Assembly (NCBI GenBank): GCA_902777015.1
Contig: CACYSA010000001.1
Coordinates: forward strand, 1-50,524
Reading direction: 5' to 3'
DNA from: an uncultured Erysipelotrichaceae bacterium
GTDB lineage: Bacteria > Bacillota_I > Bacilli_A > RFN20 > CAG-826
DNA: 50,524 bases
Position numbers and translations under genes: made by a program
The notes under the pieces: generated by a model
What the model saw: the letters and a program-made list of their open reading frames with translations, nothing else
The model's database searches: none
Told to the model about the DNA's origin: nothing
Shown here: one piece after another, positions 1-14,404 of the stretch
Layout of the letters: each line of letters starts with the position of its first letter
Numbering within the stretch: the first letter of the stretch is position 1

Positions 1-25
1 GTGGATTAAAAATATAATTTTTTGG

Positions 26-54
26 TTGACTGATTTAACAGATTTCTATATATT
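26..54 (+). promoter_or_regulatory. Predicted rpsD promoter
   Basis: TTGACT at 26-31 and TATATT at 49-54 are separated by 17 bases, a good match to a housekeeping sigma-A promoter. Transcription would start near position 61, leaving an untranslated leader of about 160 bases before rpsD. Confidence 0.6.
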
Positions 55-60
55 ATTAAC

Positions 61-200
61 TGCATGTAATGCAGCATGTGAATACAATCCGACCGACGTT
101 TGATACGGCTGTGACGAAGTAACCAAAGCTCTAAGGTGAAACGATTAATCAAACATCCGGGATGAGGAATTCACACCTATTCATTATTTTGCAAAAGAAA
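61..200 (+). promoter_or_regulatory. Structured rpsD leader, probable S4 autoregulatory element
   Basis: The leader holds a short hairpin (62-65 with 69-72) and a long-range helix in which GTTTGAT at 98-104 pairs perfectly with ATCAAAC at 148-154. GGTG at 135-138 can also pair with CACC at 174-177, which crosses the previous helix and gives a pseudoknot-like layout. Firmicute rpsD is known to be repressed by its own product through a structured leader. The position, length and crossing pairing fit that, but I have not matched it to a covariance model. Confidence 0.5.
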
Positions 201-222
201 TAAAGGAAAGGAAGGATATATC

Positions 223-828
223 ATGAGATATACAGGTTCAGATTGGAAAAGATCCCGTCGTTTAGGTTTTTCCACATTAGAAACAAGTAAAGAATTAGCA
301 AAACGTCCTTATGGCCCAGGCCAACATGGTAACACCCGTCGTAAAAAGAATTCTGAATACGGCAAACAATTAATTGAAAAACAAAAATTAAGACAAATGT
401 ATGGTGTTAACGAAAGACAATTCAGACGTTTGTTCATGCTTGCTTTAGCAAGTAAAGAAGTTACTGGTGTTGCTTTCATGAAACTTCTCGAATCCCGTTT
501 AGATAACTTAGTTTATCGTATGGGCTTTGCCAGAACTAGAAGAGGCGCAAGACAACTCGTCAACCACGGCCACATCGAAGTTAACGGCAAGAAGTTAGAC
601 ATCCCATCAGCATTATTAAATGTTGGTGACGTTGTCAGCGTGAGAGAAAATAGTAAAGACCTTAAAGTGATTAAAGAATCCTTAGAAACCTTAGGCACAA
701 AAGTTGGCTGGGTTGAAGTGGATGCTGAAAAGTTATCTGGTAAATACGTTAGAGAAGTCGAACGTAAAGAATTACCACAAGATATCACCGAATCACAAAT
801 CGTTGAATACTACAATAGAAAACTCTAA
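223..828 (+). CDS. rpsD: 30S ribosomal protein S4
   Basis: This is S4, which binds 16S rRNA early in assembly of the small subunit. The 201-residue length is normal. The N-terminal region with the PYGPGQHG motif, the conserved helical core and the S4 RNA-binding domain (about residues 90-155, with [13 protein letters not shown] and NHGHIEVNG) are all visible. There is no cysteine, so it is the zinc-free form common in low-GC Gram-positives. A strong AAGGAAGG ribosome-binding site fixes the ATG. It is monocistronic, with its own promoter and leader and a hairpin terminator after the stop. S4 probably represses its own translation or transcription through the leader. Confidence 0.97.
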
Positions 829-847
829 TATCAACAAAGAGCAAATT

Positions 848-877
848 AAAATCGTCCCAGAAATGGAACGATTTTTT
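848..877 (+). terminator. Rho-independent terminator after rpsD
   Basis: AAATCGTCC pairs with GGAACGATTT (one bulged A) and is followed by a run of seven T. The same hairpin may also stop transcripts arriving from the first Nif11-leader gene on the other strand, since that gene ends at 896. Confidence 0.75.
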
Positions 878-895
878 TCTTATATTTTTATGAGA

Positions 896-1171
896 TTATT
901 GTTGTATCCAAGTATAGCCACAGCCTTGACATTCATATTCTCTGCCATCTTTGACAATATCATTACAGCCACATTTTGGGCAATCCCAGAAGCTCATATG
1001 AGATAATATGCTAGATATAGACTTACAACCACCATTGACTGCGGTAAGTTGTTCATCTGTTAATTCAACGCCTTCGGCTTTAGCTAGCGCTAAAAGATCT
1101 TCACTATTCTTACACGCTCTAACCTTTTCAATTTGTTCTTTACTTAAACCTTTTAATAATTCTTTTTTCAT
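896..1171 (-). CDS. Nif11-type leader peptide with zinc-ribbon-like core (copy 1)
   Basis: This 91-residue protein has two parts. Residues 1-48 match the Nif11-like leader family of natural-product precursors: MKKELLKGL, the LLALAKAEGVELTDEQL core, and an AVNGG double-glycine end where such leaders are cut. The 43-residue remainder starts with Cys and contains CPKCGC and CQGCGYTW, a four-cysteine zinc-ribbon pattern instead of a typical lanthipeptide or cyclised core. The ATG at 1171 is chosen because GGAG lies seven bases upstream; an earlier in-frame start at 1216 lies across the promoter element. No maturation enzyme or peptidase-transporter is encoded nearby. Its own promoter carries tandem site A. 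The leader family call is strong; the fate of the peptide is unknown. Confidence 0.85.
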   Translation of the reverse strand: MKKELLKGLSKEQIEKVRACKNSEDLLALAKAEGVELTDEQLTAVNGGCKSISSILSHMSFWDCPKCGCNDIVKDGREYECQGCGYTWIQQ

Positions 1172-1194
1172 TATAGTTCTCCATTTATGGTTAT

Positions 1195-1227
1195 ATATTA
1201 ACAAACCGGTTGTCACAAAAGTGCCAC
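1195..1227 (-). promoter_or_regulatory. Tandem regulatory site A with -10 box
   Basis: On the minus strand GTGGCACTTTTGTGACA (1227-1211) is a direct repeat with an 11-bp period. TAATAT at 1200-1195 follows after 10 bases. The repeat occupies the -35 position, which suggests an activator-dependent promoter for the Nif11-leader gene. It is one of six such sites in the window. Confidence 0.65.
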
Positions 1228-1229
1228 TT

Positions 1230-1538
1230 TTAATAGCGGCTTATGACAACCTTATACTCGTGCCCACAGTCATGACAGATATATGCATCCCAAACCATTC
1301 TACCAATATCATGATGGCCAGTACATTCTGTATTAGTGTGATCACAATTTGGGCATCTCTTTGGATCATTGATATTGCCATCAGGAACACAAGCCCCACC
1401 ATTAACGGCTTCTAATTGCTCATCAGTAAGTTCTATGCCTTCTTCTTTAGCTAAGGCTAATAATTCATTATGGGTTTTACATTCCTTAATCTTGGCGAGT
1501 TGTTCTTTATTTAATCCTTTTAATAATTCTTCTTTCAT
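1230..1538 (-). CDS. Nif11-type leader peptide with zinc-ribbon-like core (copy 2)
   Basis: This 102-residue paralogue of the neighbouring gene starts MKEELLKGL, carries LLALAKEEGIELTDEQLEAV and ends the leader at NGG. The 54-residue core begins Ala-Cys and contains CPNC and CHDCGHEY, plus extra Cys and His residues between them (TECTGHHD), so it could bind one or two metal ions. AGGAGG lies nine bases before the ATG, a very strong ribosome-binding site. It has its own promoter with tandem site B. The leader is much better conserved among the copies than the core, as is usual for families in which a shared processing or export machine recognises the leader. Confidence 0.85.
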   Translation of the reverse strand: MKEELLKGLNKEQLAKIKECKTHNELLALAKEEGIELTDEQLEAVNGGACVPDGNINDPKRCPNCDHTNTECTGHHDIGRMVWDAYICHDCGHEYKVVISRY

Positions 1539-1571
1539 TATTAATGACCTCCTTTATATTGGCTCATCTAC

Positions 1572-1604
1572 AATATAACAAAATTACTGTCACAAAAGTG
1601 TCAC
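1572..1604 (-). promoter_or_regulatory. Tandem regulatory site B with -10 box
   Basis: GTGACACTTTTGTGACA (1604-1588, minus strand) is the most symmetrical of the six tandem sites; both half-sites read GTGACA. TATATT at 1577-1572 follows after exactly 10 bases. It serves the second Nif11-leader gene. Confidence 0.65.
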
Positions 1605-1606
1605 AT

Positions 1607-1632
1607 TAAAAAAGAGCGGGATGACCCGCTCT
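1607..1632 (-). terminator. Terminator of the small lipoprotein gene
   Basis: AGAGCGGG pairs perfectly with CCCGCTCT across an ATGA loop, and on the minus strand six T follow. It lies 16 bases beyond the lipoprotein stop, immediately before tandem site B, so the downstream Nif11-leader gene is a separate transcription unit. Confidence 0.85.
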
Positions 1633-1648
1633 ATAGATTGCTATTTTA

Positions 1649-2083
1649 TTAGGCAACGCCTGGGAATGCTACTGAGAAGGATGTTTCAGAACCGCAATAC
1701 GCGACGTTATTGTGTGAACCAATTCTTGGCTTTAAGTTTTTACCTAAATTAATTTCAATATAAGTATTCATCGCAGCGATGTTACCATGTTCGCCAGTGA
1801 CAAATGCTTCGGCATCTTTAACGTTCTTGAAATAGAACGCTAATAATAAGTCTTGATCATCATCTTTGCCTTTAGAAGCGAAGACACATTCAGTGAAGCT
1901 TAAGCTGTCATCATATTCAATACCTTTAACGCGTGCTTTAGTTTCTTCTTTGTCATAAAGAGAAACGTTGTAAGATTGAGCTTCTAAATTCTTTTTCGCA
2001 TCAGCGGCTTTCATTGTGTCAGCTTGGCAAGCTGTAAGAAGTAAGGAACCTGTTAATAAGGTTGTGAGCAGTAATTTTTTCAT
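1649..2083 (-). CDS. Small secreted lipoprotein of unknown function
   Basis: The 144-residue product starts with a lipoprotein signal peptide: MKK, a hydrophobic stretch, then LLTAC with the lipidated Cys at residue 19. The mature part of about 125 residues is acidic, with a predicted alternating alpha/beta character and two further cysteines (in TECVF and VAYCGS) that could form a disulphide. I do not recognise the family. GGGAG upstream supports the ATG. The gene has its own promoter with tandem site C and its own terminator, and sits among the Nif11-leader genes that share this regulatory site. That suggests it is made under the same conditions. Confidence 0.75.
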   Translation of the reverse strand: MKKLLLTTLLTGSLLLTACQADTMKAADAKKNLEAQSYNVSLYDKEETKARVKGIEYDDSLSFTECVFASKGKDDDQDLLLAFYFKNVKDAEAFVTGEHGNIAAMNTYIEINLGKNLKPRIGSHNNVAYCGSETSFSVAFPGVA

Positions 2084-2128
2084 AATTTATTATCTCCCTT
2101 TTTTATATGAAAACTATTTAACGAATAT

Positions 2129-2160
2129 ATCTTAACATATGCATGTCACAAATGTGCCAC
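2129..2160 (-). promoter_or_regulatory. Tandem regulatory site C with -10 box
   Basis: GTGGCACATTTGTGACA (2160-2144, minus strand) is followed after nine bases by TAAGAT at 2134-2129. It is the same architecture as the other tandem sites, here ahead of the small lipoprotein gene and just after the dehydrogenase stop codon. Confidence 0.6.
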
Positions 2161-2175
2161 AAATTATACTAATAA

Positions 2176-3210
2176 TTAGAAGCACTTAGCGTTTCTTTTC
2201 TTCGCACAGTGTTCTTGATTACCACACCTATAACAGACTTCAAAGTCACTATTGAGTTCGTTATTAAAGAACTTAAGCATATTGTCCACTGTTGTGGAGG
2301 CAATATTACTTAATGCTTCCTTTGTTAAGAATGCTTGATGGGAAGTAATTAAGACATTAGGCATCGCGATTAATTGTAATAAGGTAGAGTCATCCATAAT
2401 ATGGCCTGATTTATTTTCAAAAAAGAGACTACCTTCTTCTTCATAAACATCTAAGCAGACTGTACCAATCTTGCGATCTTTAATACCTTGTAACAAATCA
2501 GCGGAATTAATTAATCCCCCACGGGAAGTATTAATAATAGCGACGCCTTTTTTCATTAAAGCGATGGAATCTTTATTAATGAGATGTGTTGTTTCTGGAG
2601 TTAATGGGCAGTGTAAAGATATAACATCAGATTCTTTAAACAATGTTTCTAAAGAAACATAATTAATATCACTATCTTTCATTGGGAATAAATCATAAGC
2701 GATGACATTCATTCCAAAACCTTTACAGATGTTAATAAAGATTCTACCGATTTTACCTGTACCGATAACACCGACTGTTTTACCATGTAAGTCATTACCA
2801 GTTAAGCCTGATAAAGAGAAGTTATATTCTCTGACTCTATTAAACGCTTTATGGATACGACGGTTACTAGTGAGATATAACGCCATCGCATGTTCTGCGA
2901 CCGCATATGGTGAGTAAGCAGGGACACGGTAGACATGGATTTTACCATACGCTGCACTTAAATCAACGTTATTAAAACCAGCGCATCTTAAGAATATGGC
3001 TTTGACACCATTTTTATATAGTTCATCAATAACCTTCTCGTTTAGTTGATCGTTAACGAAAACACAGACACCATCAAAGCCTTTAATTAAGTTAGCATTA
3101 TCTTCGGTCAATTTGGATTCGAAGTATTTAACTTCAATGTTATTTTCTTTAATTAGATTATCAAATGACTCAATGTCATATTCTTTAGTGTCAAAAAACG
3201 CAATTCTCAT
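2176..3210 (-). CDS. D-2-hydroxyacid dehydrogenase (D-lactate dehydrogenase family)
   Basis: This NAD-dependent dehydrogenase of the D-isomer 2-hydroxyacid family reduces a 2-oxoacid such as pyruvate to the D-hydroxyacid. It begins MRIAFFDTKEYDIESF, as D-lactate dehydrogenases do. The Rossmann motif GVIGTGKIG lies near residue 150, followed by the conserved LHCPLTPET and INTSRGGL segments; the catalytic His is in TSHQAFLT. At 344 residues it is slightly long because of a C-terminal tail with four cysteines spaced CxxC-x5-C-x7-C, unusual for the family. The ATG at 3210 has GGGAG upstream; the earlier in-frame start has none. Substrate is not certain. Confidence 0.85.
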   Translation of the reverse strand: MRIAFFDTKEYDIESFDNLIKENNIEVKYFESKLTEDNANLIKGFDGVCVFVNDQLNEKVIDELYKNGVKAIFLRCAGFNNVDLSAAYGKIHVYRVPAYSPYAVAEHAMALYLTSNRRIHKAFNRVREYNFSLSGLTGNDLHGKTVGVIGTGKIGRIFINICKGFGMNVIAYDLFPMKDSDINYVSLETLFKESDVISLHCPLTPETTHLINKDSIALMKKGVAIINTSRGGLINSADLLQGIKDRKIGTVCLDVYEEEGSLFFENKSGHIMDDSTLLQLIAMPNVLITSHQAFLTKEALSNIASTTVDNMLKFFNNELNSDFEVCYRCGNQEHCAKKRNAKCF

Positions 3211-3219
3211 AATATTTTT

Positions 3220-3258
3220 CTCCCTCTTTATATAATAAAAGAGCACCAGGTTTTATTC
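3220..3258 (-). promoter_or_regulatory. Possible dehydrogenase promoter inside the preceding terminator
   Basis: On the minus strand TTGAAT and TATTAT are 17 bases apart and overlap the terminator hairpin of the upstream Nif11-leader gene. This would give the dehydrogenase its own start just after that terminator. It is weakly supported. Confidence 0.3.
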
Positions 3259-3271
3259 AACCATGGTGCTT
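3233..3271 (-). terminator. Terminator of Nif11-leader gene copy 3
   Basis: AGCACCA pairs with TGGTGCT, extended by CC/GG, with a loop of about 12 bases. CTTTTATT follows on the minus strand. It lies 15 bases after the stop codon. Confidence 0.7.
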
Positions 3272-3285
3272 TATCTTCACTACTT

Positions 3286-3567
3286 TTATCGAGCTTTTTT
3301 AATGATGACGTAACCACATGTTGGATTAGTGCATTCGTATCTAATGTTTTCATTACATTCATACGTGATACGTCTCATACGTTGATAACATATTGGGCAA
3401 TCCATCTGTGTGACAGTGCACATACCACCACTGACAGCTTCTAATTGTTCAGGTGATAATTCCACACCTTCATCTTTGGCTAATGCTAAAAGATCATCAA
3501 GATTATCACACGCTTTTGCTTTAGCAATTTGTTCCTTAGTTAAACCTTTCAGTAATTCTTCTCTCAT
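3286..3567 (-). CDS. Nif11-type leader peptide with zinc-ribbon-like core (copy 3)
   Basis: This is a 93-residue third member of the family: MREELLKGLTKEQ, LLALAKDEGVELSPEQLEAV, then SGG. The core begins Met-Cys and contains CPIC, a lone Cys, and CTNPTCGYVI. Compared with the other two copies, the distal knuckle is CxxxxCGY instead of CxxCG. The ATG at 3567 is ten bases after GGGAG; a TTG two codons earlier is a possible alternative. It is separated from copies 1 and 2 by two other genes but uses the same type of promoter (tandem site D) and has its own terminator. Confidence 0.83.
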   Translation of the reverse strand: MREELLKGLTKEQIAKAKACDNLDDLLALAKDEGVELSPEQLEAVSGGMCTVTQMDCPICYQRMRRITYECNENIRYECTNPTCGYVIIKKAR

Positions 3568-3593
3568 AGTCAAAGTTCTCCCTTGTCGAGATT

Positions 3594-3638
3594 AATTTAT
3601 CATAGCGAGTGTCACAGAAGTGCCACACAGAGTGCCAC
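3594..3638 (-). promoter_or_regulatory. Tandem regulatory site D, with a third half-site
   Basis: GTGGCACTTCTGTGACA (3626-3610, minus strand) is followed after 10 bases by TAAATT at 3599-3594. A further GTGGCAC lies upstream at 3638-3632, 12 bases from the next copy. Three half-sites in a row suggest cooperative binding of more than one regulator dimer. Confidence 0.62.
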
Positions 3639-3677
3639 ACAGAGATAAAATGAAATACATCACGAGAAACAAATAGA

Positions 3678-6600
3678 TTACCTATTTGATTCGATAATTT
3701 CTTTAGCGAGATTGTATAATTCTGAGGTGTCTTTTAAATTAACCAACATTTGTTTTGGTGATTCTTTTTCTACTACTTGAAAACGATACTTAAAGCAAAG
3801 ATTTCCATCTTCTAGCGAGAACCAAAATAACGAAACATTACTCTTCCCTTTTATTCTAAATTGCTTGATCCCATAAAAATTAATGCAAGAAATATGACTA
3901 TAATTAGATTCTACCCATCTAATAAAATCATTCACAATCTTGATCTGTTCTTGAGTTCCGGTACTAACAAGAGTTGTTTTTGTTGCCTTGTTCTTTCCGT
4001 AATGATTCTTAACTAAATCATCGATGATAGCCAAAATATCGTTAAGATTCTCTTGATTTAAAGCAACACTTGTTGGTGAATCGTTAAGGGTTATCGGTTT
4101 GTAGAAAAAAGTTTTTAAAGTCAAATCAACCCAGAACCAAGGCAACATTTTTCCTTTTTTAGTGTAAATTAACTTGTTTTTCTTCTCGTTAAAATCAATT
4201 AATGAGGCATAACTTAAACAATGACTTTTAACATCGTCAACTAGCAACAAAAAGTTATTATCAAGAAACTGATTCTTATCGATAGTTTTCTCTTGATTCT
4301 TTGATACCTTATAAAAATCTTTTATAAGTAGATCTATCGTGTTTAGTATTTTATCAATATTATCTTTATTGATATCAATGGAACAAAAGTCTTCTGTTCT
4401 GGTACTCCTAAAGGTGAATACCAAATGATCTAATAAGATAGTAAACCAAAACCAAGAGCGATCTTTTTTGACATAGGCAAATGCGTTTCTTTTGAAAGAA
4501 TACTTCTCAGTTATGAACTTGCTATAATCATTGCATTTTTGTCTTATTCGAATAACGTATTCGTTATTTTTCTGTTCTTCAACACGCTTTTCTCTTTCGG
4601 CATCAATTACTTTAGGTTCTTGTTTTGTTTCTTTAACTACAGTTCCTGCCTGTCTTAATTCTTTTGCTTTTTGGATAGCTTTATTCGCTTCTAAATGTTC
4701 AATTTTTTCACCATGATATTTCAAAGCATCCCTGTTTGTGAGGTCTTCTAGTTTATATTGTTTAACATTGTTACTACGAGGATATAGCCTTTCAAATTCT
4801 TGGACTGATATTGTGTGATTACAGCCTTTCCCATCTTTTGTGTAGTTCGTACATCCGAGGAAATGCTCGTTTACATTTGTTCTTTTTTTAACAATCATGT
4901 AGCCATTTATGCATTCACCACATTCACGAATTCTTAAGCGACCACCTTTAATATCATTTGTCATAAAACCACAAAGTTCGTGTTCGTTTGAACAAATATA
5001 TAGAGGTAATCCAATAGTTGTTTTTCCATAATATTTAATTGGGAATCCACAATCTGGACAATACAAAACGTCTTTCTTCTCTAGTTTCTCATTGAAAACA
5101 CCTTTGACCGTTATGTTTTGATAACCTTTGTCTCTTATTAATTCAGTAACGAATTCTGAAGGTCTTGTTTCAGGAGCTATGATATAAACTCTGTTGCTAG
5201 TTCTAGTCAAAGCAACATAGAAAAGTCTTCTTTCTTCCGCATATTCGATTGCCCTGTCTCTTTTAATCACCAAGTCCATGACAGGATCATCTTCTTTTTT
5301 AGATGGGAACCCATTTGTTCCATTAAGGCCATTAATGATAATAACATTATCATAGGTAAGACCTTTAGAACTATGTGCTGTCATAAAAGCCATTCTTAAA
5401 GTTGGGTATTTTTTAGATACAACTCTTCTGCTTTCTTCGTAATAATCAAATATGTTATATGGTTCTTTCTCTGTTTCTTTAACGCCAAACGATTCATCTT
5501 TTAGATTTCCAACAGCTAAATGCTCAGCATCAAATCCAAATCGCCCAATTAAAAGAATTGGTTCTTTACCTTTATCCCTGTTTAAGATAGATGGATCTTC
5601 TGACACTAGTTTATCCAAAATCGCCTCTAAAGTGTTTGCTCTTTGGAATCTAGAGTTTCTTAGATTTTGTTCTTCGATTTTTTTATCATCATCACAGTAT
5701 GAGAAAATAATTACTGGATCTTTTAAATTCTTTGGAGACTTCAAAGTTTTTGGCAATTGAGTTATATTGCGTTGAACAAATTCGCCAGCAATATTAATCA
5801 ATTCTTGAGCATTTCTATAAGTATTGTTTATGCGCAATTCAACACATCCAAGCTTTGGATCTAAAATGCATTTTTTAAATTCTGTAAAAAGTGTGATATC
5901 TGAGCCACTAAACGCATAGATTGATTGCCAGTCATCACCAACCGCCATAATTTTGGCATCAGCTATCTTTGATAATTCTTTTGTTAAATTGTATCTTTGA
6001 TGAGAAATGTCTTGGTATTCATCAACGATAATATACTTGTAAGGAATCTTTTCATTGTTTTCCTGCATATTTTTGATGATTTCAACAGAATCATTGATCA
6101 TATCCGAAAAATCAATCGCATAATTAATTTTCAATTCGTTTTGATAATAGTTATATGTCCCTTCGACTATGTCTAAGAACAGTTTGTCTCTTTCGTTATT
6201 AGTTTTTCTTCTGAGCATCTTGAAATGGCCAACGTTATATCCGTTTGTCTTAAAAGCTTCTATAAATGATGTAACCAATTTAATTAGTTTGCCAATGTAT
6301 TTGTTCTGTTCAGTAGAAATAATCTGTGTAAGAATCTCTTCTTCTTGTCTTTGTTGTAACTTAAAGCCATGTTTTATTAGTTCGTCTTTTAAATGCTCGA
6401 CAATATCTCTACCATCACTATAAGCACCAAAAGTTTTCAGTAAAGTGGTTCCATGTTCTTTATGTAATTGAATTTTGTCTTTGATTGCTTTTATATATCT
6501 ATCGATTTCTAATTGAGTCCTATTATTGTTTGTGCCCTTGTCTGAAATCATCCCAAAATGTTCTAAATATGCCTCTTTGCCATCTTGGAAGATATGAAAA

Positions 6601-7655
6601 TCAGGCAAATAAATCTTATTTGAACCATCAATATGGAATTTATATGGATCCTCGTACTTGTAATCAATGCCATTTATAAATAAGAAATTGGCTATTTGCA
6701 ATTCTTGATAGGAGGCAACCTTTTCGTTTTTAATGGTTCTTTGCGCTTTTTCTCTTTGAGCAGAAACTTGCTCCGCATACGCTTTTAAATCGCCACGCAT
6801 AGTGCTGAAATCATTTCTTGATACATAATCAAAAAACTCATCAAGCGGCATATTGAAATTAGGCGGCACATTCAGATAGCTAGCAAAGAAAAGTAATATC
6901 TTACTAGCCATATTTTTATCAGTTAATATTTTTGTTTTTAAGTATTCTCTGACACAACCACCAAGAAAGTTTTCTTCTTTGACTGTCTTTTTATCTTCAC
7001 TAGTATTTATTAAATCAAAACCAACTCTATGGAATGTGCTTATTTTGCAGTCTATGCCAAGCTTTTTATTAATTCTATCTTTTAATTCGTCAACAGCCTT
7101 ATTTGTAAAAGAGATTACCAAAATACTCTTTGGATCTACGTTTCTTTTATCGACCAAGTATTTAACTTTGGCTGCTACTGTTGTTGTTTTTCCAGCACCA
7201 GCACCAGCAATAACGAGAGTGTTATCTTCATCACTTAAAACAACATTAATTTGTTCGCTATCAAGCTTAATGTTTGGATCAAAAGAATCTAAGATATGTT
7301 CCAAATAGTCTTTGTTATCGGCGGCTTCTTTTTTTAGGAATGTATTATTATGTTGATTTCTAAAGTCAGAAGACTCAAAAAGAGAAACAAAATCATTAAC
7401 AACTTCTTCACTAACACCATGTTTATTGCAATATTCAGGAAACATATTTGCCTTTTTAACTGCAACAACCTGATTGTATAAATCAGCATATTTATCGATA
7501 ATATCTAAATACTCTTTTTGTGAGATAAAACCAAGACTTTCCATAGCCTTTTTTATCTCTTTAACAGAATTGGAGAAATGATTATTTTTGTTTATAGAAT
7601 CTATTTGTGGACTATCTTTTTGTTTTTTTCCAAAAAGTTTACTAAAAATACCCAT
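3678..7655 (-). CDS. UvrD/Rep-family DNA helicase with inserted nuclease-like domain and zinc fingers
   Basis: This 1325-residue superfamily 1A helicase shows all core motifs: Walker A GAGAGKTT (151-158), SFTNKAVDELK (182-192), DEYQD (545-549), QSIYAFSGSD (577-586), TYRN (612-615), TAHSSKGLTYDNV (759-771) and VALTRT (814-819). Between motifs Ia and II, residues 315-370 carry LPDF and YLEHFG, a PD-(D/E)xK-like nuclease signature. After the helicase, residues 866-945 hold eight cysteines in topoisomerase-type zinc-finger pairs. The C-terminus (about 1040-1325) has three copies of an unknown 75-residue domain built around WFWF. The ATG at 7655 is preferred because a TGCTATACT extended -10 box lies just upstream. 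It follows the zinc-ribbon nuclease by 54 bases on the same strand. A role in DNA defence or repair is inferred. Confidence 0.85.
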   Translation of the reverse strand: MGIFSKLFGKKQKDSPQIDSINKNNHFSNSVKEIKKAMESLGFISQKEYLDIIDKYADLYNQVVAVKKANMFPEYCNKHGVSEEVVNDFVSLFESSDFRNQHNNTFLKKEAADNKDYLEHILDSFDPNIKLDSEQINVVLSDEDNTLVIAGAGAGKTTTVAAKVKYLVDKRNVDPKSILVISFTNKAVDELKDRINKKLGIDCKISTFHRVGFDLINTSEDKKTVKEENFLGGCVREYLKTKILTDKNMASKILLFFASYLNVPPNFNMPLDEFFDYVSRNDFSTMRGDLKAYAEQVSAQREKAQRTIKNEKVASYQELQIANFLFINGIDYKYEDPYKFHIDGSNKIYLPDFHIFQDGKEAYLEHFGMISDKGTNNNRTQLEIDRYIKAIKDKIQLHKEHGTTLLKTFGAYSDGRDIVEHLKDELIKHGFKLQQRQEEEILTQIISTEQNKYIGKLIKLVTSFIEAFKTNGYNVGHFKMLRRKTNNERDKLFLDIVEGTYNYYQNELKINYAIDFSDMINDSVEIIKNMQENNEKIPYKYIIVDEYQDISHQRYNLTKELSKIADAKIMAVGDDWQSIYAFSGSDITLFTEFKKCILDPKLGCVELRINNTYRNAQELINIAGEFVQRNITQLPKTLKSPKNLKDPVIIFSYCDDDKKIEEQNLRNSRFQRANTLEAILDKLVSEDPSILNRDKGKEPILLIGRFGFDAEHLAVGNLKDESFGVKETEKEPYNIFDYYEESRRVVSKKYPTLRMAFMTAHSSKGLTYDNVIIINGLNGTNGFPSKKEDDPVMDLVIKRDRAIEYAEERRLFYVALTRTSNRVYIIAPETRPSEFVTELIRDKGYQNITVKGVFNEKLEKKDVLYCPDCGFPIKYYGKTTIGLPLYICSNEHELCGFMTNDIKGGRLRIRECGECINGYMIVKKRTNVNEHFLGCTNYTKDGKGCNHTISVQEFERLYPRSNNVKQYKLEDLTNRDALKYHGEKIEHLEANKAIQKAKELRQAGTVVKETKQEPKVIDAEREKRVEEQKNNEYVIRIRQKCNDYSKFITEKYSFKRNAFAYVKKDRSWFWFTILLDHLVFTFRSTRTEDFCSIDINKDNIDKILNTIDLLIKDFYKVSKNQEKTIDKNQFLDNNFLLLVDDVKSHCLSYASLIDFNEKKNKLIYTKKGKMLPWFWVDLTLKTFFYKPITLNDSPTSVALNQENLNDILAIIDDLVKNHYGKNKATKTTLVSTGTQEQIKIVNDFIRWVESNYSHISCINFYGIKQFRIKGKSNVSLFWFSLEDGNLCFKYRFQVVEKESPKQMLVNLKDTSELYNLAKEIIESNR

Positions 7656-7675
7656 ATCCTTAAAAATCCTAATAA

Positions 7676-7684
7676 AGTATAGCA
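7676..7684 (-). promoter_or_regulatory. Extended -10 promoter of the helicase gene
   Basis: TGCTATACT on the minus strand is a TGn-extended -10 box about 20 bases before the helicase ATG. The preceding TGTGCTA matches the -10 region of the neighbouring nuclease gene (TGTGCTACAAT), suggesting coordinated expression. No clear -35 box is visible. Confidence 0.4.
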
Positions 7685-7709
7685 CAAGCAAATAGTTTAA
7701 AACTATTGT

Positions 7710-9935
7710 TTATATTTTGTTCATCGCTCTTTTTCTTCTGCTCATTGCTGATTTAATCTTGCCACATTCTGGACAGCCGCTTCCCTTTTTTCTGGAATAT
7801 GGTTGGGTCCACCAATCGTGCCCACAAATGGAACATTTCCAATGAACTTTTTCATGCGAACTGCAACATACTTTATCAGGAGAGAGAATATTATCCCTAC
7901 AATATTCTTTGACCAAATTAGGCAATTTTTCCGCTATTGAACCATTCTTTTTCAAAGCAAGCTCTTTGTGGCGCAAACCATTCGCTTTGTCAGCGCATTT
8001 TCTACATCCATTCCCAGCGCTTCTTCTAACAGGAGGAGCTTTATATTCGTACCCGCAAACTGGGCATTTCCACCAAACTGGAGTCACTGATTTATAGTGA
8101 ATGTGTTGAGGATCAATTCCAGCGTTTTTTTCATACAGCCATTCATTCAAAAATTCTGGATGCTTAGTCGCGAAATCGTTGTGCCCCACAATAAGTTTCC
8201 TATTTGCACATTTTGGGCAGCCTCTTCCATGATGCCTATTGGCAATTCTTTCTTGCCATTCATGACCACAAATATGGCATTTCCACCACACTTTTTCATC
8301 AGATCCATTAGTGTAGCATTCAGGCCCTTTTACGTTTCTTACATAGTTCCAATCATCTAATAAAATGCGATTCGAGATTGAACCTTTTTCTTTTATAAGA
8401 TTCGCTCTTCTTCTTATCCTCTCGCTTTTTGCTACGCATTTTGGACAGCCATCAGAGTTTACTTGATTATTTATTGTTCTTTCGTATTCACATCCACAGT
8501 CAGGACATAACCACCATGCTTTAAAATCGCTTTTTGATTTAAACATAGTTGGCTTAAGTGTTCCATTCTTAGTTGGATGCCAATACTTTGCCTTATCTGG
8601 ATATGTATCCTGCAAAGAATCTTTGACCTGGGTAGCATATCTCATAATCTCAAATCTATCTCTAGAAAGATTTACATCGATTGTGTTTAACCAATAGATG
8701 TCTGTGTAATCCAAATGCTCTAAAACAATATGAATAACTTTAGTGAAACCTTCTTCTGATTCAAAATCATCTGATGATATCATTTCGTCGGCCAAATCTA
8801 GCCCTAACTCATCAGGCATTTTTTCTTTAATGCGTATTAACTTAATATGTCTTTCTTGACACAAATGATATTTTTTTCTTTCTCTATCAAAGTTTTCATT
8901 CTTATGCCAAGCTACTCCATCATACTCTATAGCAGTACCAATTGAAGGAATAAAGATATCCAATTCCATTCTCCCAAAAGATTCTGGTTTATATCTACTT
9001 ATAACATTTGGATACATTTTTCTTATGTAAAAGCATAGTGCTTGCTCTCTAAAAGAAGTTTGTCTTCCACTATTGCAAATTGGACAGTTAGTTCCATGTG
9101 TAGAAGAACGATGATTAATGTTTGCTTGGTATTCGTGCCCCACTGGGCAAAGCCACCAAACGATTTTGTTTTGGCTAGGAAACACCATATTAGGCTTCAA
9201 ATCGCCATTTCTAGTTGGATGCCATTCACTTGCTAAATTGGGATTAACAGTTGCTAAATCATTGACGCTAGGAACAAGTGTTCTTCTTCCACAACATGGA
9301 CAACCTCTTCCATTTTTCCTGTTGCTGATTTTTGCCTCCCATTCATAACCACAAACATGGCACTTCCAATGAACCTTAATGTTCGCTTTAGGCGTTACTT
9401 CGGTTGGCTTTACTATGTTTTTAGAATAATCCCAATCCAGAAGAAGTCTTTCATCGTTTAGACATCCGTTTTTATTCAGTTCAAATATGTGCCTTTTATA
9501 TGATTGTTCTTTCTTAGAACATTTAGGGCAATTAATTTCTTTCTTTGTTGCTACTCTTACTCGCCCAGTCCATTCAAAAGAGCATTTATGACATTTCCAA
9601 GAAACAATTGTTAAACTTCTTTTGGAAAGTGATGATGGATCAATGTTTTTATTCTTGCTATAGTCCCAATCTAACATCAAAATAGGATAATTTGATTCAA
9701 AGTCATTTATACCCTTTATCACAAGATAATTTGAACAAACTGGACAGCCAAAACTTCTAAATATCTTTTTATCTGGAGAACATAAAAACGATGGATGACC
9801 TTCTTTACATTTCCAAAAGTATTTTTTATTGCTTCTAGGACTGACGTCAGAAGGCTTTATTGGATAGTTCAGCTCAAAGTCCCAGACATCATCTATATTC
9901 GGCATGTAATCATAAATATTTTTCTTTAATTTCAT
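7710..9935 (-). CDS. Nuclease with eight zinc-ribbon (DUF4379-like) repeats
   Basis: The 741-residue protein is built of repeats of about 65-75 residues of the form W-K-C-x2-C/GH...C-P-x-C, joined by segments such as LLDWDYSKN and EWHPTRNG. Four lie before and four after a central domain at about residues 294-375. That domain has FREQ (E297), MELDIFIP (D326) and IEYDGVAWH (E337, D339), the layout of a Vsr-like or PD-(D/E)xK endonuclease. The repeats match the probable zinc-ribbon family often seen with such nucleases. It is likely a DNA-binding endonuclease. The ATG lies only seven bases after a TACAAT -10 box with no ribosome-binding site, so the mRNA is probably leaderless. It lies upstream of the helicase. 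Confidence 0.8.
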   Translation of the reverse strand: MKLKKNIYDYMPNIDDVWDFELNYPIKPSDVSPRSNKKYFWKCKEGHPSFLCSPDKKIFRSFGCPVCSNYLVIKGINDFESNYPILMLDWDYSKNKNIDPSSLSKRSLTIVSWKCHKCSFEWTGRVRVATKKEINCPKCSKKEQSYKRHIFELNKNGCLNDERLLLDWDYSKNIVKPTEVTPKANIKVHWKCHVCGYEWEAKISNRKNGRGCPCCGRRTLVPSVNDLATVNPNLASEWHPTRNGDLKPNMVFPSQNKIVWWLCPVGHEYQANINHRSSTHGTNCPICNSGRQTSFREQALCFYIRKMYPNVISRYKPESFGRMELDIFIPSIGTAIEYDGVAWHKNENFDRERKKYHLCQERHIKLIRIKEKMPDELGLDLADEMISSDDFESEEGFTKVIHIVLEHLDYTDIYWLNTIDVNLSRDRFEIMRYATQVKDSLQDTYPDKAKYWHPTKNGTLKPTMFKSKSDFKAWWLCPDCGCEYERTINNQVNSDGCPKCVAKSERIRRRANLIKEKGSISNRILLDDWNYVRNVKGPECYTNGSDEKVWWKCHICGHEWQERIANRHHGRGCPKCANRKLIVGHNDFATKHPEFLNEWLYEKNAGIDPQHIHYKSVTPVWWKCPVCGYEYKAPPVRRSAGNGCRKCADKANGLRHKELALKKNGSIAEKLPNLVKEYCRDNILSPDKVCCSSHEKVHWKCSICGHDWWTQPYSRKKGSGCPECGKIKSAMSRRKRAMNKI

Positions 9936-9942
9936 TGAAATA

Positions 9943-9973
9943 ATTGTAGCACATTATGGTGTTAAGCTATCAA
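9943..9973 (-). promoter_or_regulatory. Promoter of the zinc-ribbon nuclease gene (leaderless)
   Basis: TGCTACAAT is a TGn-extended -10 box (hexamer at 9948-9943), with TTGATA at 9973-9968 as a loosely spaced -35. Transcription would begin at or one base before the ATG at 9935. Confidence 0.45.
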
Positions 9974-10176
9974 CAGACAAGATTGCAAGCCAATGCTAAT
10001 TACTGTTTAGTAAGCATTAAGGTTGCTATCGAATATTTGTATTTTAAGTAACTATTTGAGCACTTTTGCAGCGAAAAATTATCTTTCTAAAAAGAATCGC
10101 CAAAAATCTATATCTCTTTGCCAATCATTGATGAGTAAACTTTTCTTAAAAGATAGTTTTCAAGTGAATGCATGTT
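9974..10176. other. Intergenic stretch without recognisable feature
   Basis: About 200 bases between the nuclease promoter and the next stop codon. I see no coding potential, clear terminator or repeat here. The composition is AT-rich like the surroundings. Confidence 0.4.
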
Positions 10177-10803
10177 CTATTGGTTAGAATACTTCTTTAA
10201 AGCGTAGTATAGAATTTGAGCTTCGTTAGGATTTTTATAGCTTACAATATAGCATCGACCGAAAAGTAAGAAAGACAGCTGGTTTTCAGACATGACAATA
10301 TTGCTCGAAAATCTCATATTAAGTGAGCTTTCACCGATTTTTATCATGTCTCCACGTATCGAAACATCTGAAAGCTGGAGATTAATCACTTCAAAACCTT
10401 CCCCGTTGTCTTTATCACTAATTTCAGGTTTTAATTCTTCATTGCTAAAAGTTATAACTTTTTCGTTTTTATTTTGAATAGAATGGTTCCCAGAATAATT
10501 ATGATGATAAGAGTAGTTTTCATCTCTTACACAGAACATGAAAATAGAAGCAAGCAATACAACAGGAATGTACAAAAAGGCCATAATATTGATAGCGGTT
10601 TTTGAATCTCTGCTTAAGGCGATCAAACATCCAATACTTGTAACCAAGGCATATCCCCCGTACCCGAAGAAAATCAGCATCGCTTGTTCGACACCGGTTA
10701 AGTTTGATTGGCTTGCTTGTGAAATTGTTATAAGACCAATAAGAATTAAAAATATTGATGCTATTAGCCCAATAATCACAAATACTCTTGATGCACCTCT
10801 CAT
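10177..10803 (-). CDS. Membrane protein of unknown function (pair member B)
   Basis: The 208-residue product has three predicted membrane helices in its first 110 residues (around 8-28, 42-62 and 72-92), then a Tyr/His-rich linker (NYSYHHNYSG) and a soluble domain of about 90 residues. It resembles the upstream neighbour in having three helices and a YxYHxxxY-type linker, so the two may have arisen by duplication or work as partners. GGAG upstream supports the ATG. The gap to the upstream gene is 32 bases, so they are probably one operon. No family is recognised. Confidence 0.65.
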   Translation of the reverse strand: MRGASRVFVIIGLIASIFLILIGLITISQASQSNLTGVEQAMLIFFGYGGYALVTSIGCLIALSRDSKTAINIMAFLYIPVVLLASIFMFCVRDENYSYHHNYSGNHSIQNKNEKVITFSNEELKPEISDKDNGEGFEVINLQLSDVSIRGDMIKIGESSLNMRFSSNIVMSENQLSFLLFGRCYIVSYKNPNEAQILYYALKKYSNQ

Positions 10804-10835
10804 AAGTTAAAACTCCTTATAACTTCAATATCATC

Positions 10836-11606
10836 TTATCCGAGAAGTTCTTTTTTCTTCTGATCAAATTCTTCTTGGGTAATAATATTCAAATCAAGCA
10901 ATTCTTTATATTTTTTGATTTCTTCAAATTTGTCTGTTTCAGTTTCTTTATTTGCGCCAGGAACAAATGCTTGATATAACTCATCTTGTTTTTTTCTTTC
11001 TTGAGCGATGAATTCAGGATTTTTAACTTTAATGTAAACATTATCTAGTGACGTTTCTGCTCTAAATATAGATGTCCCACGATCGACCTGGATAGTTAAA
11101 TATTCGCCATTAACTTCTATAACTTCACAAATATCGTCACTCGCAACTCTTTTGCCAACTGTAGAAGCGTAAAAGCCATCAATAATCTTAATAATAGAAC
11201 CAGCGGATGCTTTATAATTTGCAGACGGTTTAACAAAAATATACTCATCTATTTTTTTCTCTTCTATTGCATTTTCTTGTGGCTTTTGCTGAGATTGAGA
11301 AGAGTAATAACTATGTGCATGGTAAGTATATCTTCCATAGGAGTTTGGAATACAAAGAGTAAGAATACCACCAACTAAACTAATAAAAAGCAAAGTTATG
11401 ACTCCCCAAGCAACTATATGTTCGCCATCTGATACATTTTGTTGTCTAGCTATCAAAATAATTAATCCAACAATTGTGTAAACGACGGCGATTGCAATAA
11501 GCCATTTGAAACCAGATGCCATTGAATAAAAAACCATCCAAATCCAAATTGTTGCAATTTGAATTATGCCACCAGACCAGCTAAATATATTTGAAGCTCT
11601 TTCCAT
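10836..11606 (-). CDS. Membrane protein with C-terminal SHOCT motif (pair member A)
   Basis: The 256-residue product has three predicted membrane helices in the first 100 residues, a Tyr/His/Ser/Gln linker (RYTYHAHSYYSSQSQQ), a soluble beta-rich domain and a final amphipathic segment (KYKELLDLNIITQEEFDQKK). That final segment matches the SHOCT motif, a short C-terminal oligomerisation element. The ATG at 11606 has GAGG nine bases upstream; an in-frame start 54 bases earlier lacks one. It is the first gene of a two-gene unit with the neighbouring membrane protein. Function unknown. Confidence 0.7.
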   Translation of the reverse strand: MERASNIFSWSGGIIQIATIWIWMVFYSMASGFKWLIAIAVVYTIVGLIILIARQQNVSDGEHIVAWGVITLLFISLVGGILTLCIPNSYGRYTYHAHSYYSSQSQQKPQENAIEEKKIDEYIFVKPSANYKASAGSIIKIIDGFYASTVGKRVASDDICEVIEVNGEYLTIQVDRGTSIFRAETSLDNVYIKVKNPEFIAQERKKQDELYQAFVPGANKETETDKFEEIKKYKELLDLNIITQEEFDQKKKELLG

Positions 11607-11677
11607 ACTATATTCCTCGTTTTCTATTTTTAACATAGAGAAAAAGAAAACAAATTTCAATAACGCGTATTCCTATT

Positions 11678-12317
11678 TTGAGTTCCCCGTTTTTTAAAGG
11701 AGTTGATAAGGAAAGCGATAAAATCGCTATAAATGCCATTAAAATCTAGGAATATTGGATAAATTGGGCTATTTTCATACCAAGAAGGCGGTTAGAAAAA
11801 TATCGAAGGTATGAAATTATGAACGAGTCCGTTTTGCTATGTCACAACCTCCTAGAAAAGATGAAAAAACTTATTAGTATAATTGTTGGAAAATCTTCAG
11901 GAAGACAATTTAAAAGCTACCTTGATATGGCATATGGAATTCTTAAAAGCAAAAGCATTGTTTTGAATGAAATCGCCCATGCCTTAAATTAAGAGACATC
12001 GCTCAAAAAAGTGAATGAGAATTATCGATGATGAATCTAATTACTTATATCACGAATTAAAAGGCTATGAAAAATCTATCAAAGAAAAAGTATCAATTGA
12101 ATTCTATAGAATTCTATCTTCAATAAACACTATATTAGGTATGAACAAAAACGGGGTAAAAAACTATAAGCCTATAAGAAACACAAAAACAAAACAATTA
12201 TCACTATTCAAAATTAATGATTTTGCTTAACAGTTCGCCATCAAAAGTATAATTCTAAAAATCACAAAAAATGAGGCAAAATTTACCTCTAAATTTTTGC
12301 AAAAAGGGGGAACTCAA
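11678..12317 (+). mobile_element. Decayed insertion sequence with terminal inverted repeats
   Basis: TTGAGTTCCCC plus a T-run at 11678-11695 is matched in inverted orientation by a G5 run and AACTCAA ending at 12317, giving imperfect terminal inverted repeats about 18 bases long around a 640-bp element. Inside are the two ends of a transposase with the middle deleted. I could not identify a target-site duplication. The element resembles an internally deleted derivative that could have been mobilised in trans. Confidence 0.6.
11819..12230 (+). pseudogene. Transposase remnant (N- and C-terminal pieces)
   Basis: An open stretch at 11819-11992 encodes 57 residues (MNESVLLCHNLLEKMKKL, then LDMAYGILKSKSIVLNEIAH) typical of the N-terminus of DDE transposases that begin with a helical domain. 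It ends in a stop after ALN, but the reading continues as ETSLKKVNENYR. A second open frame at 12015-12230 has the basic C-terminal style of such transposases and ends near QLSLF. The catalytic DDE domain is missing. The piece is inactive. Confidence 0.6.
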
Positions 12318-12324
12318 GCACAAA

Positions 12325-12352
12325 GAAAAAACCTCAACGTTCCCGCTGAGGT
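12325..12352 (-). terminator. Terminator of the 472-residue lipoprotein gene
   Basis: On the minus strand ACCTCA...TGAGGT forms a stem with additional internal pairing (CG/CG), followed by six T. It lies about 10 bases past the stop codon. Confidence 0.75.
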
Positions 12353-12362
12353 ATTTGTGTTT

Positions 12363-13781
12363 TTAGGCTTTTTCGTTAGCGAATGCTAGTTCGATGTACT
12401 CAATATCGAACCTTGCGTTATTGCTGTTATCAACGTGTTCACTTATTAGCGAAAAACTGTTAGGATATACATCCATTCTTCCTATTCCAGCAAAAAATCC
12501 TGCTGATATAGTACCAAATGTATAAGTGTATGTTCCATCTTCCATTGGGAGTTCGTAAGTGCCCCAATCATCATCATATCTAGTAGATCTTTCGTTACCA
12601 TAAATGTTATTATCAAGGCTTGGTACGTAATAAAAGGAAGGAACCAATCTCAAAGTATTAGCATAAGTAGGCATGGTTGCGGCGAATTTAATAGTAAAAG
12701 ATTTAATATTAAACACGTGATAATTCCAAAGATCGAGATCAAAATAAGAGTTCATATCACCAAGCATTCTTATTAAATTGCCATCACTTTTACTCCAAAC
12801 ATAAGCACTAAATTGTGCGTCACAACCTTTTTTGAGACTTAATCTGTCACCATTATATTTAACGGTAGAATTATCAAGTCTTAATGTATTTCTTGTGATT
12901 AATACTTGATTTCTCGTTTCTTCATCTTTAGATACCTTGATTAAATATTCACCACGATATTTTGGTTTTGCAATTTCATTATCATTCATGAAATGTGTTC
13001 TCGAATTGGTATAAAAAGATGAGAAACCATAATATTTGAATTCTTCACCTGTGTAGTTAAAGACACCGAAGTAATCAGTTCTTCTAATATCCATGTTTTG
13101 GAATATAGCGTAACTATGTTCATCAGCTTCAGCATTAGGAGTAATTACACCACTAGTATTATTAAAATTACCGCCTAAAAAATATCCTCTAGTGCTGTTA
13201 TCAAAAGAGAAGGAATAAGTACCCGCAAGACGGGTTGCAATAGCTTTAGACACTACTGGCTCTTCTGCCTCTTTTGATAATGTTAAATAGGCCATCATGA
13301 ATGAATCTTTTTGAGAAGCAGGAATGTCATAAATTGTATAAACAATATACTTGGTATATCCACTGCCTTCATCAGTAGCGGTCATTGGTGTACCGTTATT
13401 ATTTAAAGTATCGTAAGTCACTGTTGATAAATGACCATCAGATTGTGCTTTAACAATAGTTGCATCTTTACCCGCTACCGCTCTAGTCCAAGAAGCAGTT
13501 ACACCATCTGCTAAGCCACTAATAGCGGCAACATATCTCACAGCGTAATATGTCTGTTCTTCTATTTCATATGTGGCGTGTTGGACACCTACTTTAGGGG
13601 CTAGATTCCATTCACTAGCGGGTTCTGGATCCGCTCTTTTTGGATTTAGTTTTCCAAATAATTCTTCGTGAGCAAGATTGTCTTCTTTGATTTTATCAAC
13701 TGGTGATTTTTGATTTAGACCACCACAGCTAGTTAACACTAAGAATGTTGGTAATAACGCTAAAAATATTTTCTTATTCAT
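12363..13781 (-). CDS. Large secreted lipoprotein of unknown function
   Basis: The 472-residue product starts with a lipoprotein signal (MNKKIFLALLPTF, lipobox LTSC). An Asp/Lys-rich linker and a PADPEPASEW-like stretch lead into a long extracellular region rich in Tyr, Asn, Ser and Thr. The last 200 residues look like a beta-sandwich carbohydrate- or ligand-binding domain, but no catalytic motif is seen. The ATG at 13781 is 11 bases after GGGGAG; the ATG three codons earlier is too close. It is the last gene of a three-gene unit that begins at the InlB-repeat lipoprotein and is headed by tandem site E, with a terminator right after. Confidence 0.72.
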   Translation of the reverse strand: MNKKIFLALLPTFLVLTSCGGLNQKSPVDKIKEDNLAHEELFGKLNPKRADPEPASEWNLAPKVGVQHATYEIEEQTYYAVRYVAAISGLADGVTASWTRAVAGKDATIVKAQSDGHLSTVTYDTLNNNGTPMTATDEGSGYTKYIVYTIYDIPASQKDSFMMAYLTLSKEAEEPVVSKAIATRLAGTYSFSFDNSTRGYFLGGNFNNTSGVITPNAEADEHSYAIFQNMDIRRTDYFGVFNYTGEEFKYYGFSSFYTNSRTHFMNDNEIAKPKYRGEYLIKVSKDEETRNQVLITRNTLRLDNSTVKYNGDRLSLKKGCDAQFSAYVWSKSDGNLIRMLGDMNSYFDLDLWNYHVFNIKSFTIKFAATMPTYANTLRLVPSFYYVPSLDNNIYGNERSTRYDDDWGTYELPMEDGTYTYTFGTISAGFFAGIGRMDVYPNSFSLISEHVDNSNNARFDIEYIELAFANEKA

Positions 13782-13783
13782 AA

Positions 13784-13918
13784 TTACCATTTCTCCCCGT
13801 TATCTGTACCATCATCATCAAAGAAGCGTCTACTACCACTTGTAAGGATGATATCTTCAGGTTTGAAATCCACTATTTCGGCAATAGGTTTTTCATATTT
13901 TTTCTTTTTGTTTTCCAT
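13784..13918 (-). CDS. 44-residue peptide of unknown function
   Basis: This is a short gene with GGGAG ten bases before its ATG. Its stop lies two bases before the start of the large lipoprotein, so the two are very likely translationally coupled. The peptide begins MENKKKKYEKPIAEIVDF, continues KPEDIILTSGS and ends acidic (FFDDDGTDNGEKW). The KKYEKPxxEVVxF...EDVI-TSG style recurs in small peptides of gut Firmicutes and resembles a leader followed by a small tail; that comparison is from memory. It has no signal peptide and no cysteine. Function unknown. Confidence 0.65.
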   Translation of the reverse strand: MENKKKKYEKPIAEIVDFKPEDIILTSGSRRFFDDDGTDNGEKW

Positions 13919-13946
13919 AGACTTTATTCTCCCTTTTATTGTCTAA

Positions 13947-14345: not shown

Positions 14346-14353
14346 AAGAAGGT

Positions 14354-14386
14354 TTATTAACTTAATTGCTGTCACAAAAGTGCCAC
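14354..14386 (-). promoter_or_regulatory. Tandem regulatory site E with -10 box
   Basis: GTGGCACTTTTGTGACA (14386-14370, minus strand) is identical to site A over 17 bases although the two lie 13 kb apart. TAATAA at 14359-14354 follows after 10 bases. It controls the InlB-repeat lipoprotein unit. Confidence 0.65.
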
Positions 14387-14404
14387 ACCCTGACGAGGTG
14401 TGGC
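14378..14404 (-). terminator. Terminator-like hairpin overlapping tandem site E
   Basis: GCCACACC pairs with GGTGTGGC over eight bases with a seven-base loop, followed on the minus strand by ACTTTTG. It probably ends the 757-residue lipoprotein transcript. Its 3' arm is the first half of tandem site E, so terminator and promoter share sequence. Confidence 0.5.

What the first reader, a model, noticed from the sequence alone, without database searches (positions are those of the whole stretch)
3678..9935. Candidate two-gene defence or DNA-processing module: multi-domain helicase plus zinc-ribbon nuclease
Two large adjacent genes share near-identical extended -10 sequences (TGTGCTAyAnT). One encodes a UvrD-type helicase carrying a PD-(D/E)xK-like insert and zinc fingers, the other a Vsr-like nuclease framed by eight zinc ribbons. 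Helicase-nuclease pairs are typical of anti-phage systems, and the pair sits in an accessory stretch with lipoproteins and an insertion-sequence remnant. I know of no named system with this exact combination.
Basis: inference. Interest (0 to 1): 0.75.

Follow-up and report, generated by a model that had tools for sequence, protein, structure and literature searches.

The report
Helicase-nuclease beside a homing-type nuclease
Two real neighbouring genes, one for a helicase with a built-in nuclease and one for a zinc-finger nuclease of the selfish homing-endonuclease kind, sit in a swappable patch of a gut bacterium's genome where a close relative keeps a restriction system instead, but in related bacteria the two are not found side by side, so they are probably chance neighbours and not a new two-gene defence system.

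Summary
Both genes are real and the domain reading is largely right. The helicase (3678-7655, minus) is Helicase-IV/UvrD-like. Its insert is a confident PD-(D/E)xK nuclease fold (T7 endonuclease I/Bax1-like) whose catalytic acidic residues are invariant in 70 homologues. It also has two topoisomerase-type zinc ribbons and three copies of an unnamed tail domain. The second protein (7710-9935, minus) has eight DUF4379 zinc ribbons around an EDxHD nuclease whose best structural match is the homing endonuclease I-Bth0305I.

The pairing does not hold. In 279 genomes of the order, 34 have the helicase insert, 16 have multi-ribbon DUF4379 proteins and 3 have both (2 expected by chance); only the window has them adjacent. 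None of 80 helicase loci elsewhere has a multi-ribbon neighbour. DUF4379-EDxHD genes instead lie beside GIY-YIG or NUMOD-HNH homing-type genes.

The accessory setting is real. In a sister species the same spot holds a BglII-like enzyme, a C5 methyltransferase and DUF2971. The closest helicase relative (83%) directly follows a type II restriction gene.

Best reading: an unnamed, restriction-associated helicase-nuclease, and, independently, a homing-type selfish nuclease. Interest lies mainly in the helicase family.

The parts
3678..7655 (-). Helicase-nuclease gene, 1325 aa from ATG at 7655 (1337 aa if TTG at 7691 is used)
6306..6803 (-). PD-(D/E)xK nuclease domain inserted between the helicase motifs (residues 285-450); E318, D352, E365, H366 and K394 invariant in 70 homologues
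4821..5060 (-). Two topoisomerase-type C4 zinc ribbons (residues 866-945), cysteines conserved in the family
3681..4805 (-). Tail of about 375 aa with three copies of an unnamed WFW domain of about 95 aa; found only in the closest subfamily (two copies in L299; one copy in L301, L302, L309 and L316, of which at least L301, L302 and L309 also end in an HRDC-like segment)
   Evidence: sequence; Pfam finds nothing above threshold
7710..9935 (-). Zinc-ribbon/EDxHD nuclease gene, 741 aa
9063..9911 (-). N-terminal array of four DUF4379 zinc ribbons (residues 9-291)
8721..9077 (-). EDxHD (Vsr/I-Bth0305I-like) nuclease core; E297, E324, D326, E337, D339 and H344 invariant in 12 homologues
7752..8609 (-). 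C-terminal array of four DUF4379 zinc ribbons (residues 443-728)
7676..7686 (-). Putative extended -10 (TGTGCTATACT) before the helicase ATG
9943..9953 (-). Putative extended -10 (TGTGCTACAAT) before the EDxHD gene
3273..12326 (.). Variable spot: absent from sister species G004, whose syntenic locus (flanks about 90% identical) carries DUF2971, a BglII-like REase, a C5 methyltransferase and a NERD-like protein instead

Best explanation
Two independent accessory genes that happen to lie next to each other in a swappable genome spot. (1) The helicase is a Helicase-IV/UvrD-type SF1 motor with a T7-endonuclease-I/Bax1-like PD-(D/E)xK domain inserted in its core and zinc ribbons behind it. Most likely it loads on DNA ends or branched intermediates, translocates with ATP, and cuts or resects the DNA with its own nuclease, serving as an add-on to restriction-type defence that finishes off DNA which has been cut or stalled. 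(2) The zinc-ribbon protein is a homing-type EDxHD endonuclease: the eight ribbons would read a long DNA site and the central domain would cut it, which promotes copying of its own gene rather than defending the host. Shown here: the domain make-up, conserved catalytic residues, lack of co-occurrence, the variable spot, and the company each family keeps. Inferred: the biochemical activities, the substrate, and the defence and selfish roles.
For: No pairing: 34 helicase and 16 multi-ribbon genomes of 279, 3 shared against 1.95 expected (P 0.31), one adjacent; none of 80 helicase loci in other lineages. Helicase and defence: the closest homologue (83% over the core, another genus, L299) starts 2-3 bases after a type II REase gene that lies beside a divergent C5 methyltransferase; L301 (65%) lies beside methyltransferase genes; L302 (66%) near HsdR; L309 (65%) in an integrase island with DUF2971 and NERD-like proteins; the more distant L305 is 21 bases from a type IIG enzyme. 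Sister species G004 has an R-M cassette at the window's own spot. Homing type: profile hit to 3r3p 'Mobile intron protein' E 2e-4, Foldseek top hit I-Bth0305I at probability 0.99, PHROGs 'HNH endonuclease' 3.3e-54 and 'homing endonuclease' 1.5e-9, homologues in phage records often named homing endonuclease, neighbours GIY-YIG+NUMOD1 and NUMOD4+HNH, NUMOD1-like C-termini by eye in some relatives, and a published outgroup of EDxHD homing endonucleases with DUF4379/CapR/DUF723-like repeats (PMC12350094).
Against: Across the whole helicase family the R-M link is weak: by motif, methyltransferases within 4 kb in only 4 of roughly 90 loci, so defence may be a clade habit or hotspot hitch-hiking. The window itself holds no REase or MTase near the helicase. 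The K of the E-x-K motif is replaced in the nuclease insert (EHF), so catalysis is not certain. No target site or homing event was seen for the window's EDxHD gene. The two genes are on one strand only 54 bases apart.
Confidence: 0.72

Rival explanations
1. The two genes do form a two-gene defence module, with the zinc-ribbon nuclease as the DNA-reading and cutting part and the helicase-nuclease as the degrading part; the combination is a rare local assembly.
For: Adjacent on one strand with a 54-base gap, similar -10 boxes, both in a spot that carries R-M genes in a sister species; a relative of the helicase (L309) has a single DUF4379-like finger in its neighbour, a metallophosphoesterase.
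Against: No co-occurrence beyond chance and no second adjacent case; each gene has its own putative promoter; the 83% helicase homologue sits beside a restriction gene and without a DUF4379 protein.
Confidence: 0.06
2. The helicase-nuclease is a DNA-repair or recombination enzyme (processing stalled forks or Holliday junctions like RecQ or Hel IV with a resolvase attached), carried by accessory DNA but not for defence.
For: T7 endonuclease I, Hjc and Bax1-like nuclease; HRDC/RQC-like tails and a RecQ gene nearby in a few loci; a recurrent 180-aa partner gene of unknown role in 16 of 80 loci.
Against: Very patchy within a genus and order, neighbours change between loci, and the closest homologue directly follows a restriction gene.
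Confidence: 0.3
3. The DUF4379-EDxHD protein is itself a restriction-like defence or inter-element weapon rather than a homing endonuclease.
For: Many copies on plasmids and viral contigs; EDxHD and Vsr folds are close to restriction enzymes; a weak hit to a REase family (MTES_1575).
Against: No methyltransferase or immunity gene was recognised beside the copies inspected; several neighbours are homing-type nucleases; specific structural match to I-Bth0305I.
Confidence: 0.2

Closest known systems
Helicase IV (HelD, NF008276) and PcrA/UvrD SF1 helicases
   Same: Whole SF1A motor with all helicase motifs; best NCBIfam family is DNA helicase IV (291 bits)
   Different: Falls below the Helicase IV cut-off (543); carries an inserted nuclease, two C4 zinc ribbons and a repeat tail
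T7 endonuclease I (PF05367), archaeal Bax1 and Hjc nucleases
   Same: PD-(D/E)xK fold with E, D, E in matching order; profile and structure matches
   Different: The K of ExK is replaced by EHF with a conserved K394 further on; it is an insert in a helicase, whereas Bax1 is a separate partner of XPB helicase
Gabija (GajB helicase with GajA nuclease)
   Same: UvrD-type helicase; best PADLOC profile is a GajB model (9e-47)
   Different: No GajA among the flanking proteins scanned; the nuclease is in the same chain and of a different fold
EDxHD homing endonucleases (I-Bth0305I) and the DUF4379/CapR/DUF723 outgroup in PMC12350094
   Same: EDxHD core with repeated small DNA-binding domains; same Pfam repeat; phage and plasmid relatives
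   Different: Free-standing, not in an intron; four repeats on each side of the core instead of repeats followed by a C-terminal core; no NUMOD1 in the window copy
Vsr mismatch endonuclease (PF03852)
   Same: Same broad nuclease fold as EDxHD
   Different: The window protein gives no Pfam Vsr match; the closest structure is a homing endonuclease

Membership tests
Gabija defence system | GajB-like UvrD helicase | tested here: inconclusive
   PADLOC GajB 9e-47, but partial stretches, and any UvrD helicase is likely to hit these models
Gabija defence system | Adjacent GajA (OLD-type ATPase/TOPRIM nuclease) | tested here: not met
   No PADLOC hit in the six other window proteins scanned, including both sides of the helicase
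DNA helicase IV (NF008276 equivalog) | Score above the curated cut-off of 543 bits | tested here: not met
   290.9 bits
SF1A UvrD-like helicases | Walker A, Walker B (DEYQD), GDDWQ, and motif VI (VALTRT) | tested here: met
   Core residues of all four conserved at 95% or more in 70 sequences
PD-(D/E)xK nucleases | Fold and acidic catalytic residues E...D...E | tested here: met
   E318, D352, E365 invariant in 70 sequences; AlphaFold/Foldseek and profile matches
PD-(D/E)xK nucleases | Lysine two positions after the second acidic residue | tested here: not met
   Position is F or Y; H366 and K394 are invariant and could substitute
EDxHD homing endonucleases | EDxHD catalytic domain related to I-Bth0305I | tested here: met
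   Profile E 2e-4 to 3r3p; Foldseek top hit 3r3p at probability 0.99 although E 0.011
EDxHD homing endonucleases | Repeated modular DNA-binding domains around the nuclease | tested here: met
   8 DUF4379 ribbons, 4 on each side; NUMOD1-like C-termini by eye in relatives L321, L324 and L325
EDxHD homing endonucleases | Cleavage of an empty allele and transfer of the gene into it | not testable with these tools
   Needs purified protein or a two-allele cross; the sister locus differs over 9 kb, so no clean empty site was available
   1 adjacent case in 34 helicase genomes of the order, 0 in 80 other helicase loci

The most novel reading that the evidence does not exclude
The helicase family is an unnamed anti-phage helicase-nuclease: a single-chain machine that unwinds and cuts DNA, working alone, with a restriction enzyme, or with a small 180-aa partner protein that adjoins it in about a fifth of the wider family's loci. 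The homing-type gene next to it in this window plays no part.
Probability: 0.3. Interest if true: 0.6.

Novelty: new variant of a known kind. Interest (0 to 1): 0.38.

Why it matters
It clears up a tempting but wrong pairing and points to two better leads. First, a widespread, unnamed helicase-nuclease family (Bacteroidales, Clostridia, Bacilli, Spirochaetes) with an invariant T7-endonuclease-I-like insert, linked to restriction genes in the window's own clade and to a small partner gene elsewhere. Second, multi-zinc-ribbon EDxHD nucleases look like homing-type selfish genes in bacterial chromosomes, which warns against counting them as defence genes because they sit in variable spots.

Tried and rejected
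Gabija: rejected, no GajA. RecQ as the regular partner: at first 20 loci seemed to have RecQ (this is also in my notebook), but on inspection few were true RecQ genes; most were a separate 180-aa protein that resembles the end of one long RecQ. General R-M linkage of the whole helicase family: not supported by a motif search, so it is claimed only for the window's clade. PADLOC comparison of adjacent with distant neighbours: 76 against 20 matching models, but much of the surplus is RecQ-like helicase models, so it is weak evidence. Shared regulation from the -10 boxes: rejected as the ordinary promoter consensus. L321/L322: a DUF4379 segment 99.96% identical in two genera, starting at the 3' ends of different tRNA genes, both contigs ending in it; it suggests mobility, but the segment could be a misassembled repeat, so it is not used as proof. 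Literature searches gave no named system with this helicase make-up, within an open-access library only.
Full report
What is there. On the minus strand the window holds a 1325-aa helicase gene (3678-7655, ATG start; the ORF opens at a TTG at 7691) and, upstream, a 741-aa gene (7710-9935). The start at 7655 is preferred because the protein start MGIFSKLF resembles those of relatives (MGFL, MGLF) and the putative -10 box lies upstream of it. The genome is a 1.62 Mb, 45-contig assembly, 82% complete, probably of an uncultured Bacilli; related genomes in the order match public records titled 'uncultured Bacilli bacterium' and 'Bacillales bacterium UBA2450'.

Helicase anatomy. Pfam finds UvrD helicase domains (6.9e-45), and the best NCBIfam family is DNA helicase IV at 291 bits, below its cut-off of 543. 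Between the first motifs and the rest lies an insert, residues 285-450. A profile from 45 homologues hits T7 endonuclease I in the PDB (E 0.0015) and Bax1 weakly; 33 of 45 members match Pfam Phage_endo_I. AlphaFold gives pLDDT 93 and Foldseek ranks Bax1 first, followed by other nucleases including R2 endonuclease, Hjc and RecU; E-values are 0.005 and weaker. E318, D352, E365, H366 and K394 are invariant in 70 family members, and the helicase motifs and the cysteines of two C4 zinc ribbons at 866-945 are conserved. The canonical lysine of ExK is replaced by F or Y, so activity is likely but not certain. The tail (951-1325) has three copies of a roughly 95-aa WFW domain without a Pfam name; it was found only in the closest subfamily: twice in L299 and once in L301, L302, L309 and L316, and I read an HRDC-like end in L301, L302 and L309.

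Zinc-ribbon protein anatomy. There are exactly eight DUF4379 ribbons (4.2e-120), four before and four after a nuclease core. The core's profile (12 homologues) hits one relevant PDB chain, 3r3p 'Mobile intron protein', at E 2e-4. The AlphaFold model (pLDDT 83) has I-Bth0305I as its top Foldseek hit, probability 0.99, E 0.011. E297, E324, D326, E337, D339 and H344 are invariant. PHROGs calls the family HNH/homing endonuclease; phage records with matches (119) often carry such names. A 2025 paper describes group II intron homing endonucleases with repeats related to DUF4379, CapR and DUF723 followed by an EDxHD/Vsr domain, as a large unrecognised outgroup (PMC12350094). In the window's order, relatives lie directly beside GIY-YIG/NUMOD1 (L221), NUMOD4/HNH (L223) and, for a DUF4379/CapR relative, GIY-YIG (L225) genes. 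This is the company of homing-type genes.

Are they a pair? In 279 genomes of the order, 34 have a strong match to the helicase insert (E below 1e-20) and 16 have strong multi-ribbon DUF4379 matches; three have both, 1.95 expected, P 0.31. In the other two (G172, G201) the genes are on different contigs. In 80 helicase loci from Bacteroidales, Clostridia, Spirochaetes, Bacilli and one viral contig, no multi-ribbon EDxHD protein lies nearby; one (L065, also seen as L309) has a single DUF4379-like finger at the end of a metallophosphoesterase, and L123 has a distant weak match. Of 80 viral loci encoding the EDxHD core, none carries the helicase within the flanks held. So the pairing in the window is most likely chance in a shared hotspot.

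The hotspot. A sister species, G004, is about 90% identical on both sides (window 8-3272 and 12327-17641), but window 3273-12326 is replaced by about 4 kb that encodes DUF2971 (3.2e-9), a BglII-like REase (3.5e-6), a C5 DNA methyltransferase and a NERD-like protein (the last two read from sequence). The closest helicase homologue (L299, 82.6% over residues 12-950, another genus) begins 2-3 bases after a type II REase gene and lies near a divergent C5 methyltransferase. The start of that methyltransferase closely resembles the one in G004's alternative allele. L301 is beside methyltransferases; L302 is some 3.5 kb from HsdR, with an FtsK/HerA-like ATPase and an HNH gene between; L309 is in an integrase island with DUF2971. 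L316 shows no defence gene in what was examined. Outside this clade, L305 is 21 bases from a type IIG enzyme, but overall methyltransferases are near in only 4 of about 90 loci. In the wider family the most frequent neighbour is instead a 180-aa protein with no Pfam or NCBIfam name, adjoining in 16 of 80 loci and fused to the helicase in L075 and L079. No homologue of it was found in the window.

How it likely works (inferred). The SF1 motor would move along single strands from ends, gaps or branches; the zinc ribbons would hold DNA; the inserted nuclease would nick branched or unwound DNA. Beside a restriction enzyme this would finish the destruction of cut foreign DNA; a repair role is the main rival. 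The EDxHD protein would bind a long site through its ribbons and cut it, favouring spread of its own gene.

Limits. Neighbours were called as longest ORFs. Counts of helicase and DUF4379 genomes were taken by hand from the tables with E cut-offs of about 1e-20 and 1e-15.

Noticed in passing
window 896-1171, 1230-1538, 3286-3567 (minus); L410 (G000:C15) 5188-9478; L235 1921-2584: A repeated family of about 95-aa proteins: a Nif11-like leader ending in GG (LLKGLTEEQIAKVKACKN...ELTDEQLxAVSGG) followed by a CxxC...CxxC zinc-ribbon-like core; nine in a tandem cluster on contig C15. Weak TIGR03798 leader_Nif11 matches.
   Followed up: partly
L061-L140, e.g. L086:12819-13361, L098:13183-13740, fused in L075 and L079: A 180-aa protein (motif KLANGINP) without a Pfam or NCBIfam name adjoins the helicase gene in 16 of 80 loci and is fused to it in two: probably the true partner of the wider helicase family.
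   Followed up: partly
L321 (G228:C22) 5465-7825 and L322 (G117:C40) 3407-5767: A DUF4379-EDxHD gene with a 94-aa companion lies in a 2361-base segment 99.96% identical in two genera, starting at the 3' end of different tRNA genes; both contigs end within it. Mobile element or assembly artefact.
   Followed up: partly
L065/L309 2783-6406; similar large proteins near G142:C28, G121:C30, G239:C9, G076:C154: A 1207-aa metallophosphoesterase with one DUF4379-like finger near its C-terminus, in an integrase island with DUF2971 and NERD-like genes; several relatives of similar size in the order.
   Followed up: no
window 11676-11815 and 12178-12317: Short repeats with many copies in sister genomes, often at contig ends, at the right edge of the variable spot: likely a small mobile repeat.
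   Followed up: no
L220 (G000:C25) 4494-6381 and L325 (G230:C3) 5713-6906: Two DUF4379-EDxHD genes in different genera both have the same two small genes nearby (an HTH-like 130-aa protein and a 220-234-aa possible HD-type protein), read from sequence only.
   Followed up: no
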